From positions 1 to 60,261 of the forward strand of contig CAJXYT010000004.1 in assembly GCA_913063505.1 (NCBI GenBank): 60,261 nucleotides of DNA, written 5' to 3'. Positions within the stretch are counted from its first letter, which is position 1, and each line of letters opens with the position of its first letter. Below are positions 5,659 through 17,256 of this stretch, piece by piece. Made by a program: the position numbers and the translations under genes. The DNA comes from an uncultured Gammaproteobacteria bacterium. GTDB taxonomy: Bacteria > Pseudomonadota > Gammaproteobacteria > Steroidobacterales > Woeseiaceae. The notes under the pieces were generated by a model that had not been told where the DNA came from, ran no database searches, and was given only the letters and a program-made list of their open reading frames with translations.

Positions 5659-6093
5659 TCACCCCAACTCGTCTTCAAGCGTGTAGCGCTCGCTGCGCCG
5701 CTGCATAGCCGCACCTAGCTCCGGCATCACCCACAGCTCAATCGGTTTTTTCCCTCGTATCTGAAAATTCTGTCTGCCTCGTTTTTCCTGTCTATAACGC
5801 ACGCAGTCCCAGGGCACCTGAATGCAGGCTGGCACTTTCTGCGGACCGGGGCCACCATAGAGTATCCAAAACCCATCGTCATCCAATACAATATCGACTT
5901 GCGAATAATTGAACGACCCGACCTCAATGCTCTCGCCTTTGAAGGCGGCAGATATTGGCCGTTTATCGGTTTCGTAAAGCTTGGCTAGCTCTCGCCAAAC
6001 ACCAACATATTTAGCCGGCTGATACATAACAGCTGCGATAGCAACAATCGCAAGAATGGCGATGACGCCGATAGGTGAGGCAAGAAAGTTCAT
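5659..6093 (-). CDS. Hypothetical protein with N-terminal TM segment
   Basis: 144 aa ORF, hydrophobic N-terminus 'GVIAILAIVAIAAVMY'; no family recognised. Confidence 0.6.
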   Translation of the reverse strand: MNFLASPIGVIAILAIVAIAAVMYQPAKYVGVWRELAKLYETDKRPISAAFKGESIEVGSFNYSQVDIVLDDDGFWILYGGPGPQKVPACIQVPWDCVRYRQEKRGRQNFQIRGKKPIELWVMPELGAAMQRRSERYTLEDELG

Positions 6094-6221: not shown

Positions 6222-6554
6222 TCAATCATCGTCAAGACAACGTCTTGTAAATTCGTCCTGCATAGCGATAATTTTACCTTTACTTTGAGCTATTTCATCT
6301 TCCTGATTATCTGTCAAAGCGTCAATCCTAGGTATGATGAGTAAGCTCAATGCAAGGACCCAATTTCTAGATGCGCGCTGCTCGCCTGACAATCTCTCCA
6401 GGTTACTCATTTCTTGCGTAAGAAGCATTTCTACATTTCTACAAGCCATAGTTGTATAGGGAATTCTTGATACAGATGCCGGCTGAATACTAGATGGAGC
6501 TGCAGCACATCCCACTAACGTAGCTAGCGTAATTACTATTATTCCCTTTTTCAT
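6222..6554 (-). CDS. Putative small lipoprotein, hypothetical
   Basis: Internal Met start gives MKKGIIVITLATLVGCAAAPSS with a lipobox (LVGC); low-GC surroundings. Confidence 0.6.
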   Translation of the reverse strand: MKKGIIVITLATLVGCAAAPSSIQPASVSRIPYTTMACRNVEMLLTQEMSNLERLSGEQRASRNWVLALSLLIIPRIDALTDNQEDEIAQSKGKIIAMQDEFTRRCLDDD

Positions 6555-6739
6555 AATGACTCTCTCTAAATTAATCTGCGACATAGGAATACGCCTAAAT
6601 CTTTGATATTGCAAAGATTTAGAATGATTGAAGTTTAATTTAGTTAATCAGACACAAATGGACGAAAAGGAGATTTGGTGCATGTGTGGCCATTGAGGTG
6701 ATAACTGATTGATTAAAGAAAGTATTACTCTATGCGGCC

Positions 6740-9538
6740 TTAAGAGCCAAAAGCAGTGCGTCTCCAACCATCATCACTACGACGAATCTCGTAAGCCGGC
6801 CAGTATTGGTTGTCGAGCTTCAAGGTGATGACTTCTGCCGTACCATTCCAGGTAACGGTTTTCAGTCGAACTGATTCTCGATGCTCGGTATTTTTCACGG
6901 CATTGATAAACGCCTGCAAGTTTGGTGTTGCAACCTCATTCACTTCAACAACTCGGCGTCCAGCCCAAAGACCGTAACGTGTCGCTGGAGACCCATAGCT
7001 AAAATAGGCAACATAAACGCCGTCAGTCGCGATACCGCGTTGAGCCGCCATGGCCCGATGCGGGTCTTGCAACAACGCGCCCGCCCAAGAAACAGCCCTA
7101 TCTATACCGCGGCCGCTCAATTTAGCTGTTTCAACTGATAATTCGCGGACCCCATCATTCCGCCATACGGTTACCAGCACTTCCGGTTTTTGCACGGCGT
7201 TTTCCAGCGCTCGATAAGACGTCACAACGTCGCCATCGATCGCTAAAACGATGTCACCATTCTTGAGTAATCTCGCAGCAGCAGTATCTGCAACCAGTCG
7301 CGTAATGCTCAGAGCGCGGCGGCGCACCGGATTGTTTTTCTCCAGTCGAGCGATCCACTCTTCGTCAACGCCCATCTTGCGCGCCGCAAACAACGGCGCA
7401 TAGACGAACTCGGCTTCCAATGAATAGAACGGTCGGCCATTACGAACTATGTCCAGAAACTGTGAAATCACCTCGCTACCGATACCTCGATTAAATTGCG
7501 TTGCTTCGCCGCCCGACTGCAGTACAAAGCTCGACCAACTCGCCGACACACGGCCTTTGTTATCAACCAATACACCATCGAAGTCCGTCGGCGCTGTAAC
7601 GAGGTCGATTCCCTCAATATTCGAATCACGGAAACGCAATGTTTTCGATAACGGCAGTACCAATGGATCTACTGATGAAACTTTACTTTCCTGATGCACG
7701 AGCTGATGATCAGGCTTGATGCCTACGACCAGAACATCGTCACCTGGCGTAAGAGGTGTCGTATTGAATTCGGCACTTTCGATGGGTGTATCACCGATGC
7801 TCTTTGGGTCGTAAGAAACGATTGCGAAGTTATGCAATGGATGTAGCTGCACGATCTTCGCGTCAACCTCAAGAGAGCCGGCAAATGTAATCTTCACATC
7901 ACCGATGGCTATTGGAACTGTGTTGCGGTCGACTACAACGTAGCCACGCTCTTTGTCGACGATCAATCCTGTGCCGTAGTAGTGCCGTTCCGAGACACCC
8001 GATAGCGTATACGGAAGATCGAACGTTATAACGACCAATGACGGTGCAATCTTTTGTAGGCGCGGATCGTCATAGTCGTTCAGTTTTGTGCTTCCGACTT
8101 CGACGGGCGGCGACTCCGGACCAGCCGCAAGCGTGCGACATGGCCATGCGCCTGTATCATCATCCCGAATGCATCGCTTTACGGGGAACCAAACACGATC
8201 CATTTCCAGAAGGCGTACTACGGAGTTCTGTGGATTCTCCATGTTGACATAACGAACCGTGGCACGTTCGCCGTCGGCAAGTTCATTCAGTGCCGCCTCA
8301 AAATCATCCAGATTTTCCATCGGCTCGCCGTCCATCTCGACAATAACGGCTCCACGAGGAATTGCTGCCTTCGACAGTAGATAACCAGGATTGGCTACAT
8401 AAACGCCACTCGCCTGTCGGTTGTAGTATCGAGCTTGTTGATAGGACAAGGTATTGACAATGCCGTCACCGAACTCCAGATATTCATCCGGCGTTATCGC
8501 ATGTAAGTCGTCGACCGTAATCATTTGTACGATATGCCTGCCACCGCGTTCAATCTCGATCTCGATCTCTTCACCGACTTTACTGTCGAGCACGGCACCG
8601 AGCGGCACGAATTCAGTAATCATGTGACCATTTATACGGATCAGAATATCACCAGGTGCTATCTTGCCGGCCGCCGATGAATTCGGAATAACCTGGTCAA
8701 CCGCTAACATACTGGTTTGCTCTTCGCCCTTCAGTCGGGCAAGACGTTCGGATTCTGGTGTTAGACCCAAACGCCGCAGCTCATCAAACGGTTTACTTTG
8801 AAAGGTCGTTTGCAGCGTGCCTCGAGTCACTTCGCGGCCAGATCGTATCTCCTGCAAGGCTCGGTCAATACGATCCAGTGGCAGGAAAAAGCTGCTTGCG
8901 GCGGAGCGGGCTGCGCCAGCGTTTAGTGCAACCACCTCACCATCAATATTGACAACAGGCGAGCCGGAAGAGCCGCCCGAGGTGCCGGATGCAGCCTGAT
9001 AATAGAAGGTATTAAAATCGTTGTATTTACCACGACCGTACAACGGTGCTTGTCGATCAAGCCTCGCAATCGTACCCGCCAAGATCGAAAGTTGCTCACC
9101 AGCATCGTTACCGATAACGCGAATTTCCTTGCCGATACCTGCGCCGCCGGGCACCAGCGGCAATTCGGCGGGCTTAATGTATTGCAGCTCGGCGGGATCA
9201 TAACGATAGAACCCAAAATCGTGGACTGGGTCCCTATAGATCGGTGTCAGTCGCACTTCTTCGTTATTCTTGAAGACTGCCTCAGCAGTGACTGGCCCGG
9301 GCGTCACAACATGGCGATTTGTGAGGATAATACCGCGCTCGGCGTCGACGACGAAACCAGTCGCCTGGGACGAAGCGTTCCACTCGGTATCGAAAGCGCG
9401 AGTGCTATCAACACGAATCGACACCACGCCTGAGGATATGCGCTCAAGCGTTTCTGTCCAGACAGTATCTTCTGCGGCCGTAACCGTCATACTTGAAAGC
9501 AGCGACGAAGCTGCGATCAGAATCCTGACCTTTGTCAT
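6740..9538 (-). CDS. Tandem HtrA/Deg-like trypsin-PDZ protein (two protease-like halves, about four PDZ-like segments)
   Basis: Signal peptide; first triad ILTNRHVV / PVHDFGFYRYD / GTSGGSSGSPVV; second degenerate copy VVVDRNTVP / PLHNFAIVSYD / TAPTDFDGVLVD; PDZ-like segments such as 'VIPNSSAAGKIAPGDILIRINGHMI'. Confidence 0.85.
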   Translation of the reverse strand: MTKVRILIAASSLLSSMTVTAAEDTVWTETLERISSGVVSIRVDSTRAFDTEWNASSQATGFVVDAERGIILTNRHVVTPGPVTAEAVFKNNEEVRLTPIYRDPVHDFGFYRYDPAELQYIKPAELPLVPGGAGIGKEIRVIGNDAGEQLSILAGTIARLDRQAPLYGRGKYNDFNTFYYQAASGTSGGSSGSPVVNIDGEVVALNAGAARSAASSFFLPLDRIDRALQEIRSGREVTRGTLQTTFQSKPFDELRRLGLTPESERLARLKGEEQTSMLAVDQVIPNSSAAGKIAPGDILIRINGHMITEFVPLGAVLDSKVGEEIEIEIERGGRHIVQMITVDDLHAITPDEYLEFGDGIVNTLSYQQARYYNRQASGVYVANPGYLLSKAAIPRGAVIVEMDGEPMENLDDFEAALNELADGERATVRYVNMENPQNSVVRLLEMDRVWFPVKRCIRDDDTGAWPCRTLAAGPESPPVEVGSTKLNDYDDPRLQKIAPSLVVITFDLPYTLSGVSERHYYGTGLIVDKERGYVVVDRNTVPIAIGDVKITFAGSLEVDAKIVQLHPLHNFAIVSYDPKSIGDTPIESAEFNTTPLTPGDDVLVVGIKPDHQLVHQESKVSSVDPLVLPLSKTLRFRDSNIEGIDLVTAPTDFDGVLVDNKGRVSASWSSFVLQSGGEATQFNRGIGSEVISQFLDIVRNGRPFYSLEAEFVYAPLFAARKMGVDEEWIARLEKNNPVRRRALSITRLVADTAAARLLKNGDIVLAIDGDVVTSYRALENAVQKPEVLVTVWRNDGVRELSVETAKLSGRGIDRAVSWAGALLQDPHRAMAAQRGIATDGVYVAYFSYGSPATRYGLWAGRRVVEVNEVATPNLQAFINAVKNTEHRESVRLKTVTWNGTAEVITLKLDNQYWPAYEIRRSDDGWRRTAFGS

Positions 9539-9682: not shown

Positions 9683-11158
9683 CTACTCAGGCCGATAGGC
9701 TAGATCCAGTTGCCGGGCTGCTTTCACGTCGTCCAGTCGTCGCACTGGCATGGTGTACGGCGCATCCTTGAACTCGGTGCCCTCCTTGGCTGCCGTCGCG
9801 ATTGCGATCATTGCGGTAACAAAATTATCCAGGGTTTCCTTGCTTTCCGTTTCGGTTGGCTCGATGAGTAGGCACTCAGGCACCAGCAGTGGGAAATAAG
9901 TAGTCGGGGCATGATAATTCTTGTCCAGCAGCGCTTTGGCGAGGTCCATCGCCGTCAGATTCAATGATCGCGCCTCGCGTTTCAGCGTGACAATGAACTC
10001 ATGACTCGCCCGCCGCGTCGGGAACGCCAGTTCGAAGCCAGCCTCCTGTAGTCTTGAGGAAAGATAGTTCGCATTGAGCGTGGCGTATTCAGAAACGCGC
10101 TCCATACCGTCACGCCCCAGCATCCGCATGTACACATAAGCTCGAAACAAAACGCCTGCATTGCCCATAAAGCCGGACAGTCGGCCGATGCTTTGCGGCA
10201 GATCGTCCTCGGAAAGCCAGTCGTACACAGTCTCTCCATCGACCTGCTTACTACCAACAACCGGTATCGGCATGAACGGTAGTAACCGATCATTTACGCC
10301 AACAGCGCCCGAGCCTGGCCCGCCGCCGCCATGTGGTGTCGAGAACGTCTTGTGTAGATTCATGTGGATCACGTCAAAGTCCATATCGCCCGGTCGAACT
10401 TTGCCAAGAATTGCATTGAGGTTGGCACCGTCGTAATACAGCAGTCCACCAGCGTCATGAACGAGATCCGCAACCTCTTTGATGCGGCGCTCGAAAACAC
10501 CCAGCGTTGACGGATTCGTGAGCATGATACCGGCCGTCTTCGGGCCGACCGCTGATTTCAACGCATCAAAATCGATATCGCCTTCCGTACCCGTTGGCAC
10601 TTCGACCACCTGGCAGCCACACATCATCGCGGTCGCTGGGTTTGTTCCATGGGCCGCATCGGGACATATGATTTCGGTACGTTCATGATCGCCGCGAGCT
10701 TCGTGATATGCCTTGATCATTGCAACGCCCGCAAACTCGCCTTGCGCGCCGGCCATCGGCGTCAGCGAAACGCCTTTCATTCCCGTGACGTCTTTCAGCA
10801 TTTCTTGCAACTCGAACATGCAGGTCAGAAAGCCCTGTCCATGGGATACGGGACCCAAGGGATGTCGCCCAGAAAATTCAGGCAGCAATGCCAGCGCATT
10901 ACACGCTCGCGGGTTGTACTTCATTGTGCACGAGCCCAATGGATAGAATTGCGTGTCGATCGAGAAATTCATCTGCGATAAGCGTGTAAAATGGCGCACG
11001 GTCTGCAGCTCGGATGCCTCCGGCAAGCGCGGCTTGTCGTTTCGCATCAAGTTCGACGGGATATTCGACGCTTCTGCGTCAGCCGGTGCCTGTGCGAAAG
11101 CTCGACGCCCACTGCGGGACTTGTCAAATATCAGTTCACTACTCATACGACTATTCAT
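9683..11158 (-). CDS. gcvPB: Glycine dehydrogenase (decarboxylating) subunit 2
   Basis: PLP-lysine region [18 protein letters not shown]; order in gcv operon. Confidence 0.95.
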
Positions 11159-11666
11159 TTATTTCAATTCCCAGCGCGCGGAATGCCGCGCGATAATCAG
11201 GTTCTTTGGAGATATCTTGGATCTGCTCCCTGTGCACGACCGTATTATTCTCGTCTAAGACGACAACCCCACATGCGAACATGCCAGCGTATGGTCCTTC
11301 TATAATCCGCACGCCGTAATTCTCGCCAAATCCATCGTGACGAATCGCTGACAAACCAATTGCGTGCTCGAGCCCATGCTCATCTTTAAATCGTTTATGA
11401 GCGAATGGTAAGTCGTAGGAAACCATCAGCATCGCGACGTCATCGGCCTCACCAGCAAGACGATCAAATTCGATAACCGATTTGGCGCACACACTGGTGT
11501 CGACGCTGATAAAGATGTTCAGCACTTTTCTCACGCCCATGAAACTTGCAAAGGACACGTTTTGCAGTGACGTGTTAACCAGAGAAATGTCCGGCGCGTG
11601 GCTACCAATGGTTGGCAAATCGCCGTATATGCGATAGCTCGCGTTTTCGTATTGAATTTTGGCCAC
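11151..11666 (-). CDS. tpx: Thiol peroxidase (Tpx-type peroxiredoxin)
   Basis: '[28 protein letters not shown]' and '[11 protein letters not shown]...[12 protein letters not shown]' align with Tpx; overlaps gcvPB start by 8 nt. Confidence 0.9.
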
Positions 11667-14872: not shown

Positions 14873-16027
14873 TTACTTGACGCCCAGCGCGACCTTAACG
14901 GCGCATTCTCGGACCGGCCCGCTGCGATTAAACATTCGCATACCGGCCATTCTTATGTCTCCCACCAAGCCTGAGTCTGTCGTAAACAGTCGATTGAGGC
15001 CGGTCATGAAGTGCAACATCGTTAAATTAGCCCCCTTCCGGGCGCGCTCATAACGACGTAAAACGGGGCGGTCGCCGGGATGTAAGCCGTTACCGATAGC
15101 GGCGTCGATCACGCCAGCGAGCTCCGCTGCATCCTGCAGCCCCAGATTTGCGCCTTGACCCGCTAACGGATGAATGGCGTGAGCGGCATCACCGATCAAG
15201 GCGAGACCAGCCTTGACGTAATTTTCCGCATGCTGAGCACAAAGAGGAAATGCGCCCTTCGGGCCCGCCACAGTCAACCTGCCAAGAACGCCATCGGAGA
15301 CATCCGTCAGTATTTGACCAAGTTCATCGTCCGGCAATTCCACAACCCGTGCTGCCTCGTCAGGGGTCGTTGACCAGACAACAGAAATTCGGCCGTCAGC
15401 CAGCGGCAACATACCGATCGGCCCATCGTGCAAGAATCGCTGCCGTGCAATTCCCCTGTGCTCATGTTCCGCCTTGAGGTGGGTCACCACTGCGGTTTGG
15501 TCGTATGGCCACTGATTGGTCTTGATGCCTGCCAGCTCGCGAACAAATGAACGAGCGCCATCGGCGCCAACAACAAGGTCTGCCTCCGGCATTGCTGTAA
15601 TTTTGGTATCGAAGCTGAGCACTACATTGCTGTCGTCGAGAACTCGTAGCAGCGCATCCTGGATAAGGACGTTTTCGACGATGTGCCCCAACTGCGGAAC
15701 AGCAAATTCGGCCGCGTCGAAATACAATGCCGCAGCACCATCGGGATCGTCATTTTCATCCCAAACACGCATGGCCTGATACGGCGAAACGCGCATATCT
15801 TTGATGAGTGGCCAGGCCCCGACCGAATCCAGCATTTCGATCGACCCATTCGCCATGGCCGACACGCGGAGTGAAACTTCGTTAGCCGAAGAAAAAACAG
15901 GTCGAGAAACAGCATCGATTACGCTTATTTTCAATGACGCAGCATGCCGCCCTTTGGTCAATAAAGCCGCAAACATCAGACCAGTAATCCCCGCGCCAAT
16001 AATTGTAATGTTGAACTGGCCCCTCAT
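14873..16027 (-). CDS. UbiH/UbiF/VisC-family FAD-dependent hydroxylase
   Basis: FNITIIGAGITGLMFAALL; 'ALIGDAAHAIHPLAGQGANLGLQDAAEL'; last gene of pepP-ubiH-visC-like operon. Confidence 0.88.
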   Translation of the reverse strand: MRGQFNITIIGAGITGLMFAALLTKGRHAASLKISVIDAVSRPVFSSANEVSLRVSAMANGSIEMLDSVGAWPLIKDMRVSPYQAMRVWDENDDPDGAAALYFDAAEFAVPQLGHIVENVLIQDALLRVLDDSNVVLSFDTKITAMPEADLVVGADGARSFVRELAGIKTNQWPYDQTAVVTHLKAEHEHRGIARQRFLHDGPIGMLPLADGRISVVWSTTPDEAARVVELPDDELGQILTDVSDGVLGRLTVAGPKGAFPLCAQHAENYVKAGLALIGDAAHAIHPLAGQGANLGLQDAAELAGVIDAAIGNGLHPGDRPVLRRYERARKGANLTMLHFMTGLNRLFTTDSGLVGDIRMAGMRMFNRSGPVRECAVKVALGVK

Positions 16028-17256
16028 CGCAACGGCACGCCACGGGACAAACGCGGTAACTCGCCGGCGAGTCCCATTGTGTGTTTTGCGAACATTGGCC
16101 GCACCCCTGGGATCAGATCGAAACCGATCATTCCAATATTGCGCAGCGTTCGTAGTCCAGGGCGAGTGCTACCGAAAAGCCGTACGAGATTGTCCGTGAA
16201 GTGCACCAGTTTTTTCTGATCCGCACGACGCCACCCGGCATAGCGATCAAGAATATTCGAATCGCCCGGGTCGATGATCCCGGATGGGGTATCCGCTATG
16301 CAATCACACAGCGCAGCGACATCGCGCATACCGAGGTTGAATCCTTGTGCCGAAACGGGGTGCAATCCGTGTGCTGAGTTACCGACCAATACACTTCTCG
16401 TAGCGGTCAGCCGGACGGCTTTGCTCAACATCAACGGATAGGCCACCCGAGCGCTGACGCGCGAGAACTTTCCAAGCCGGTATCCGAACTCTTCCTGAAT
16501 TTCAGCCAGGAACGCATCGTCGCCGAGAGAAAGAATACGGTCTGCATCATCCTCAGAAACTGTCCAGATAAATCCTGCTCGCCCATCTACCACTGGTAAT
16601 ATCGCCAGTGGTCCTTGCGGCGTGAACCTTTCGAACGCGCGGTTACAAAGTTCTTTTTCCGGCAACAAATTACCGACTACAGCACGTTGAGCATAGGCGC
16701 GTTTTTGCACCGATACACCCATCATCTCACGGACGCTGGATTTTGCTCCATCTGCAGCGATTAGTAGCTTGCACGATAATGAACGCTCACCTTTATCAGA
16801 TGCGATTGTCGCAACAGCCTGATCGGGACCGAGCTCGATGCTTTCAATGCGGGCCGGACAGATCATGTCGACGTTGTTCATTGTCAACAGCGCAGATTGC
16901 AAGACTTCGCCCAAGACCCGGTTGATCACAACGTAACCAAGCGCCTCCACCCCTCTCTCTTTCGCATCGATATGCGAAAAACCGAAGCGACCCTTATCGG
17001 ATACGTGGATGTTGGAAATGGGCGTAGATGCGGCAACGACGTCATCCCAAAGCTGCATCGCTTCGAACATGCGCTGTGTGCTTCGAGACAATGCAGTCGA
17101 ACGATCGTCAAAACTTGGTTGCTGGCTTTCCTTGCGCGCGATCGCCTCGACAACGGCAACGCGTAGTCCAAGCGGAGCGAGCGCCAACGCAAGACTCGTA
17201 CCGATCATGCCGCCACCTGCGATGATAATATCGTAGTTGTCAGTCTCGCTGTTCAT
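16024..17256 (-). CDS. ubiH: Ubiquinone-biosynthesis FAD-dependent hydroxylase, UbiH-like
   Basis: DIIIAGGGMIGTSLALALAPLGLRVAVVEA; 'VLVGNSAHGLHPVSAQGFNLGMRDVAAL'; follows pepP. Confidence 0.85.
   Translation of the reverse strand: MNSETDNYDIIIAGGGMIGTSLALALAPLGLRVAVVEAIARKESQQPSFDDRSTALSRSTQRMFEAMQLWDDVVAASTPISNIHVSDKGRFGFSHIDAKERGVEALGYVVINRVLGEVLQSALLTMNNVDMICPARIESIELGPDQAVATIASDKGERSLSCKLLIAADGAKSSVREMMGVSVQKRAYAQRAVVGNLLPEKELCNRAFERFTPQGPLAILPVVDGRAGFIWTVSEDDADRILSLGDDAFLAEIQEEFGYRLGKFSRVSARVAYPLMLSKAVRLTATRSVLVGNSAHGLHPVSAQGFNLGMRDVAALCDCIADTPSGIIDPGDSNILDRYAGWRRADQKKLVHFTDNLVRLFGSTRPGLRTLRNIGMIGFDLIPGVRPMFAKHTMGLAGELPRLSRGVPLR

What the first reader, a model, noticed from the sequence alone, without database searches (positions are those of the whole stretch)
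6740..9538. Tandem HtrA-like protein with one intact and one catalytically dead protease domain
The N-terminal half keeps H (TNRHVV), D (VHDFGFY) and S (GTSGGSSGSPVV). The second half keeps the same scaffold but reads VVVDRNTVP, PLHNFAIVSYD and TAPTDFDGVLVD, so all three triad residues are replaced. About four PDZ-like segments follow the two halves. This double-protease/degenerate-second-half plan recalls eukaryotic Nma111/DEG7-type HtrA proteins rather than DegP/DegQ/DegS. The protein also has a signal peptide and stands alone between unrelated genes.
Basis: partly seen in the sequence, partly recalled or inferred. Interest (0 to 1): 0.62.

Follow-up and report, generated by a model that had tools for sequence, protein, structure and literature searches.

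The report
Bacterial Nma111/DEG7-type double protease
A marine bacterium carries a probably periplasmic quality-control protease made of two fused copies, one working and one dead, the layout known from yeast Nma111 and plant DEG7; it proves to be a conserved core gene of a whole bacterial order, so this "eukaryotic" design exists, and may have arisen, in bacteria.

Summary
Window 6740-9538 (-) encodes a 932-aa, probably secreted protein: protease, PDZ, PDZ_1, then the same unit again with the catalytic triad gone. Half 1 keeps H76/D107/S191; half 2 has N539/N570/F653. The halves are homologous (hhalign E 2.9e-37). Half 2 folds alone as a DegP-like protease plus two PDZ domains (pLDDT 89.5; best PDB match DegP, E 2.6e-22). 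It is not decaying: dN/dS is about 0.08 in both halves, and the plan holds in relatives down to 30% identity. The gene is core in its family (45 of 45 good genomes) and order (135 of 146), scattered elsewhere in Gammaproteobacteria, and absent from other Pseudomonadota sampled. It follows the glycine-cleavage operon in most close relatives, so "stands alone" needs amending. In a tree of halves, yeast Nma111 and Arabidopsis DEG7 (sequences recalled from memory, so a lead) fall half by half with the bacterial halves and apart from DegP/Q/S. Most likely this is the bacterial branch of the Nma111/DEG7 (clade III) HtrA family: half 1 cuts, the dead half serves assembly and substrate docking. Bacterial members of this layout are not described in the papers searched. 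Direction of transfer is unresolved.

The parts
6740..9538 (-). Whole gene: 932-aa tandem HtrA with one live and one dead protease domain
9473..9538 (-). Sec-type signal peptide, residues 1-22 (MTKVRILIAASSLLSSMTVTAA|ED); read from the sequence by eye, no predictor run
   Evidence: two distant relatives carry a lipobox-like LTSC/LTAC at this place
8834..9433 (-). Protease domain 1 (about residues 36-235), triad intact
   Evidence: Trypsin_2 87.9 bits at 8924-9364
9311..9313 (-). Catalytic His76
   Evidence: 80 of 81 close members (the exception is one row misaligned at its start) and invariant in 21 diverse members
9218..9220 (-). Catalytic Asp107
   Evidence: 80 of 81 close members, invariant in 21 diverse members
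8966..8968 (-). Catalytic Ser191 (second Ser of GGSSGSP)
   Evidence: invariant while Ser190 and Ser193 vary
8513..8806 (-). PDZ domain a (about residues 245-342)
   Evidence: PDZ_6 37.4 bits
8273..8500 (-). PDZ_1 domain a (residues 347-422)
   Evidence: PF12812 56.7 bits
8138..8173 (-). Linker with invariant Cys456 and Cys467, a possible disulfide (inference)
   Evidence: invariant in 21 diverse bacterial members; absent from both recalled eukaryotic sequences
7439..8056 (-). Protease-like domain 2 (about residues 495-700), catalytically dead
   Evidence: Trypsin_2 26.7 bits at 7547-7975; half 2 fold, pLDDT 89.5, matches DegP
7922..7924 (-). Asn539 at the His position
   Evidence: 81 of 81 close members Asn; other non-His residues in distant ones
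7829..7831 (-). Asn570 at the Asp position
   Evidence: 81 of 81 close members Asn; one distant member has Asp but no His or Ser
7580..7582 (-). Phe653 at the Ser position
   Evidence: F/V/Y/I/L in close members, never Ser
7115..7414 (-). PDZ domain c (about residues 709-808)
   Evidence: PDZ_6 35.6 bits
6884..7102 (-). PDZ_1 domain d
   Evidence: PF12812 38.9 bits
9683..14552 (-). Conserved neighbours just upstream: gcvT, gcvH, gcvP1, redoxin, gcvP2

Best explanation
This is the bacterial, envelope-located branch of the Nma111/DEG7 (clade III) HtrA family. An HtrA unit (protease + PDZ + PDZ_1) was duplicated in tandem; the second protease lost its triad before the bacterial and eukaryotic members separated, and has been kept under strong selection since. 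Mechanism: after Sec export the PDZ modules capture exposed ends of misfolded envelope proteins, half 1 cuts them (H76/D107/S191), and the dead half acts as a scaffold for oligomer assembly and as a non-cutting holding site. Shown here: architecture, homology and predicted fold of both halves, loss of the second triad, purifying selection, near-universal presence in the order. Inferred: export, proteolysis, substrate class, and the assembly role of the dead half (reported for plant DEG7).
For: Domain plan and triad status. Half 1 versus half 2 homology. Fold of half 2 and of the whole protein. Tree of halves: bacterial plus recalled eukaryotic first halves together 100/99, second halves together 100/98, E. 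coli DegP/Q/S and the genome's own DegP type outside. Full-length alignment to recalled Nma111 (38% over 912 aa) and to both halves of recalled DEG7 (48% and 36%). PDZ_1 over cut-off here and not in E. coli DegP/DegQ. dN/dS 0.076/0.076 and 0.071/0.078 for half 1/half 2. 45 of 45 good genomes of the family and 135 of 146 of the order carry it. The Deg7 plan PD-PDZ-PDZ-PDia-PDZ-PDZ and the part of the inactive domain in AtDeg7 trimerisation are stated in PMC3473262.
Against: The eukaryotic sequences were written from memory; their lengths (997 and 1097) agree with what I recall of the entries, but no database record was available. Signal peptide and lipoboxes were read by eye. The model has low confidence at residues 159-189 (pLDDT about 30), next to Ser191, so a formed active site is not shown. 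No experiment shows proteolysis or oligomer state for a bacterial member.
Confidence: 0.75

Rival explanations
1. Independent tandem duplication of a DegP-type HtrA in Gammaproteobacteria that merely resembles Nma111/DEG7 (convergence).
For: DegP has the same protease-PDZ-PDZ unit, and half 2 best matches DegP by fold. The eukaryotic rows in the tree are recalled.
Against: The two eukaryotic halves fall with the matching bacterial halves at 100% bootstrap. Linker and C-terminal motifs, and the Asn at the Asp position of half 2, are shared. PDZ_1 is over cut-off in this protein and not in E. coli DegP/DegQ.
Confidence: 0.06
2. The dead half is not mainly a scaffold but an allosteric sensor: its pseudo-active pocket and PDZ domains bind a ligand or peptide and switch half 1 on, in the manner of the DegS PDZ domain.
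For: The pseudo-site is itself conserved (VDRNTVP and HPLHN nearly fixed). Low-confidence loops before Ser191 would suit an enzyme that needs activation.
Against: No ligand is known; plant DEG7 data point to trimerisation (PMC3473262). Low pLDDT there may only reflect a shallow alignment.
Confidence: 0.2
3. The bacterial gene was acquired from a eukaryote.
For: Patchy in the class (25 of 369 genomes), none found in other Pseudomonadota classes sampled. Rooting unresolved: neither bacterial monophyly (p-AU 0.206) nor eukaryotic monophyly (p-AU 0.317) of half 1 is rejected.
Against: Core gene of a whole order, with conserved gene order and deep bacterial divergence down to 30% identity.
Confidence: 0.12
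4. The second half is a decaying remnant without function.
For: Triad lost; half 2 is less conserved over long distances (mean column identity 57% against 68%).
Against: dN/dS about 0.08, equal to the active half; half 2 is kept in all doubles compared; fold predicted with high confidence.
Confidence: 0.02

Closest known systems
Nma111/Ynm3 (yeast HtrA, nuclear)
   Same: One active plus one inactive protease half, PDZ and PDZ_1 domains after each; full-length alignment at 38% identity to a recalled sequence
   Different: The bacterial protein has a signal peptide and an invariant Cys pair in the linker, and lacks the N-terminal extension
Plant DEG7 (clade III Deg)
   Same: PD-PDZ-PDZ-PDia-PDZ-PDZ plan (PMC3473262); 48% and 36% identity in the two halves to a recalled sequence; Asn at the His and Asp positions of the dead half shared
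   Different: Recalled DEG7 has a long insert between the halves, and intracellular locations are reported (PMC4130198); here a signal peptide
DegP/DegQ (gammaproteobacterial periplasmic HtrA)
   Same: Each half has the protease-PDZ-PDZ unit and fold; same compartment inferred
   Different: Single unit, no dead copy, PDZ_1 below cut-off, separate clade at 100/100; this genome also has its own DegP-type gene
HtrA2/Omi and other single-unit eukaryotic HtrAs
   Same: Active HtrA domain; sequence hits in PDB
   Different: One protease domain; [quoted passage not shown]

Membership tests
[quoted passage not shown]
   932 aa; definition from PMC3473262
Nma111/DEG7 (clade III HtrA) | PDZ_1 (PF12812) domain | tested here: met
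   two copies, 85.8 bits in all, cut-off 28
Nma111/DEG7 (clade III HtrA) | Each half groups with the corresponding half of Nma111/DEG7 in a tree | tested here: inconclusive
   clades 100/99 and 100/98, but the eukaryotic sequences were recalled, not fetched
Nma111/DEG7 (clade III HtrA) | Trimerisation through the degenerate protease domain | not testable with these tools
   reported for AtDeg7 (PMC3473262)
Nma111/DEG7 (clade III HtrA) | Protease and chaperone activity | not testable with these tools
   chaperone activity reported for the yeast protein (PMC4877387)
DegP/DegQ/DegS | Single protease domain with one or two PDZ domains | tested here: not met
   two protease units, four PDZ
DegP/DegQ/DegS | Over the NCBIfam cut-off for Do-family, DegP, DegQ or DegS | tested here: not met
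   141.6 bits against 416.2 for TIGR02037; DegP 63 against 720; DegQ 57.3 against 756; DegS 38.3 against 408
HtrA superfamily (Trypsin_2 + PDZ) | Trypsin-like domain with His-Asp-Ser triad plus PDZ | tested here: met
   half 1: Trypsin_2 87.9 bits, triad conserved

The most novel reading that the evidence does not exclude
The fungal and plant Nma111/DEG7 proteases descend from a gammaproteobacterial envelope tandem HtrA acquired by an early eukaryote by gene transfer, separately from the mitochondrial HtrA2 line; the duplication, the inactivation and the scaffold role of the dead half arose in bacteria.
Probability: 0.45. Interest if true: 0.68.

Novelty: new member of a known kind. Interest (0 to 1): 0.47.

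Why it matters
Nma111 and DEG7 have been treated as eukaryotic HtrAs, and eukaryotic HtrA has been attributed to the alphaproteobacterial endosymbiont (PMC6411480); one study notes that bacterial relatives of the yeast protein exist but describes none with this plan in the text read (PMC5982838). A core-gene family of bacterial members with the same live/dead layout gives a tractable model for what a pseudo-protease half does, an outgroup for dating the inactivation, and a direct test of where the eukaryotic proteins came from.

Tried and rejected
No relative in viral contigs by peptide patterns. In plasmids only one distant partial hit covering 29%. No solved structure of a double HtrA by sequence: phmmer hits are single HtrAs, best E 8.4e-15. 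Papers printing the GGSSGSPV motif: none. Key papers on Ynm3 and on DEG7 trimerisation are not held. Text searches found no description of bacterial members; papers outside the open library were not searched. PDZ_1 alone is not specific at weak scores: many ordinary 450-560-aa HtrAs reach E 1e-4 to 1e-8, so doubles were counted with the half-2 profile. The phylum search at E 1e-15 also picked single HtrAs (463-532 aa), mostly through their PDZ region; these are not members. Position of the eukaryotes in the tree: tested, unresolved. Functional link to glycine cleavage: rejected as mechanism, since that system is cytosolic and the neighbourhood differs in other families. A promoter or terminator between gcvP2 and this gene: the scan is no better than chance.

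Full report
What is there. The minus-strand ORF 6740..9538 encodes 932 aa. It starts with a Sec-type signal peptide (read by eye) followed by two copies of one unit. Pfam gives Trypsin_2 over 59-205 (and a second, weaker copy), PDZ_1 twice and PDZ_6 in four stretches. Each half run alone shows protease, PDZ and PDZ_1 in that order. Half 2's Trypsin_2 score (24-27 bits) is just under the curated cut-off, as expected for a degenerate domain.

The halves are copies of each other. Profile comparison of the two halves from 21 diverse members gives probability 99.9, E 2.9e-37, over 424 columns, including both PDZ domains. Half 2 predicted alone has mean pLDDT 89.5 and pTM 0.87, and its best PDB matches are DegP structures, E 2.6e-22, over 440 alignment columns of a 448-residue half.

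The triad. Half 1: H76 and D107 are present in 80 of 81 close relatives (one row is misaligned at its start), S191 in all 81, and all three are invariant in 21 diverse members. S191 is the second Ser of GGSSGSP; by eye it aligns without gaps with the Ser of the GNSGG motif of DegP-type proteins, and relatives with GGASGSP keep it. Half 2: N539, N570 and F653 stand in these places. The first two are fixed in the 81 close members; distant members show other residues, and none examined has all three catalytic residues. The most distant doubles found, at 30% identity (L116, L117), keep the same live/dead plan.

Not decay. Window against its nearest relative L004 gives dN/dS 0.076 for both halves; against L005, 0.071 and 0.078 (most other pairs are saturated at silent sites). 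The pseudo-active site is itself conserved: D537, R538, T540 and P542, and H566, P567, H569 and N570, are invariant or nearly so in half 2.

Distribution. In the window's family 103 of 107 genomes have it (45 of 45 good ones); in the order 171 of 196 (135 of 146 good ones), with one family of small genomes lacking it in the sample. In the class, drawn broadly, 25 of 369 genomes have it, spread over about 14 families (consistent). None was found in 78 genomes of a second class and 190 of a third, large class of the phylum (unnamed, the third probably Alphaproteobacteria), nor outside the window's class in a draw of 399 across the phylum. Other phyla were not searched. Named close relatives are mostly Woeseiaceae, with Povalibacter and Steroidobacter further off.

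Context. The gene lies just downstream of gcvT-gcvH-gcvP1-redoxin-gcvP2, same strand. A gcvP2 homologue is on 76 of 80 relative loci, just upstream in those inspected, down to 56% identity of the protease, and the operon is adjacent or near in two other families (L122, L127); elsewhere the gene sits beside a FAD-monooxygenase-like gene (homologue of window 14873-16027 and 16024-17256; L129, L133-L136) or near neither. This argues for vertical inheritance. I see no functional link, because the protein is probably exported and glycine cleavage is cytosolic. The only other Trypsin_2 protein found in the assembly is a 451-aa DegP type.

Relation to Nma111/DEG7. No eukaryotic sequence collection was available, so yeast Nma111 and Arabidopsis DEG7 were written from memory; everything resting on them is a lead. 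The recalled Nma111 scores 191.9 bits for PDZ_1 and 107.2 for Trypsin_2, so it is at least a good family member. It aligns with the window protein over 912 aa at 38%; DEG7 aligns in two pieces at 48% and 36%. Linker and C-terminal motifs are shared. In a tree with E. coli DegP/Q/S as outgroup, all first halves form one clade (100/99) and all second halves another (100/98), each with bacterial and eukaryotic rows. The tool warns of long branches, but if the tree and the recalled sequences are right, the duplication and inactivation predate the split. Where the eukaryotes attach is not resolved: p-AU 0.206 for bacterial half 1 as one clade and 0.317 for eukaryotic half 1 as one clade. Evidence free of recall is the PDZ_1 domain (85.8 bits here; 16.3 and 15.2 in E. 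coli DegP and DegQ) and the published plan of Deg7, PD-PDZ-PDZ-PDia-PDZ-PDZ (PMC3473262).

Difference from the eukaryotic forms. All 21 diverse bacterial members have two Cys in the linker (C456, C467) that both recalled eukaryotic sequences lack. A disulfide in an exported protein, lost in an intracellular one, is a plausible reading. Two distant members have a lipobox-like N-terminus, which again places the family in the envelope.

How it likely works. Half 1 is the cutting enzyme; PDZ modules recruit substrates; the dead half most likely assembles the oligomer, as reported for AtDeg7 (PMC3473262), and may hold substrates, in line with chaperone activity of the yeast protein (PMC4877387). 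In the whole-protein model the stretch 159-189 before Ser191 has very low confidence; flexible activation loops would fit, but the alignment is also shallow. Proteolysis, oligomer state and substrates are untested.

Novelty. The kind is known. Papers reachable here treat Nma111/DEG7 as eukaryotic, one remarks that bacterial relatives of the yeast protein exist (PMC5982838), and a 2019 survey places PDZ_1 in a few fungi and archaea and the eukaryotic HtrA origin in the alphaproteobacterial endosymbiont (PMC6411480). I file this as a new member of a known kind, with above-average interest for the question of where the eukaryotic proteins came from.

Noticed in passing
window 11151-11666 (-): A redoxin/AhpC-TSA gene sits between gcvP1 and gcvP2 inside the glycine-cleavage operon; a homologue is on 62 of 80 relative loci.
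   Followed up: partly
window 8138-8173 (-): Invariant cysteine pair in the linker between the two halves of the bacterial proteins.
   Followed up: partly
L090 and L118, protein N-termini: Members in one distant family have a lipobox-like motif (LTSC, LTAC), suggesting membrane-anchored versions.
   Followed up: no
genomes G730, G743, G754, G765 and others of family f255: A family of small genomes (about 1.4 Mb) in the same order shows no match in the sampled genomes listed, a likely loss.
   Followed up: no
L081: A contig labelled Actinobacteria carries the gene next to gcvP2 at 71% identity; probably a mislabelled gammaproteobacterial MAG.
   Followed up: no
L061 and L068 (same MAG, N075bin63); G626: Two copies of the tandem HtrA in one assembly, either paralogues or mixed bins.
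   Followed up: no
L086 (G040), half 2: One distant member keeps Asp at the second triad position of the dead half while lacking His and Ser.
   Followed up: no
window 5659-6093 and 6222-6614 (-): Two small ORFs without Pfam match lie downstream; the second has a lipobox-like start (LVGC) and was found only on the two loci L004 and L005.
   Followed up: no
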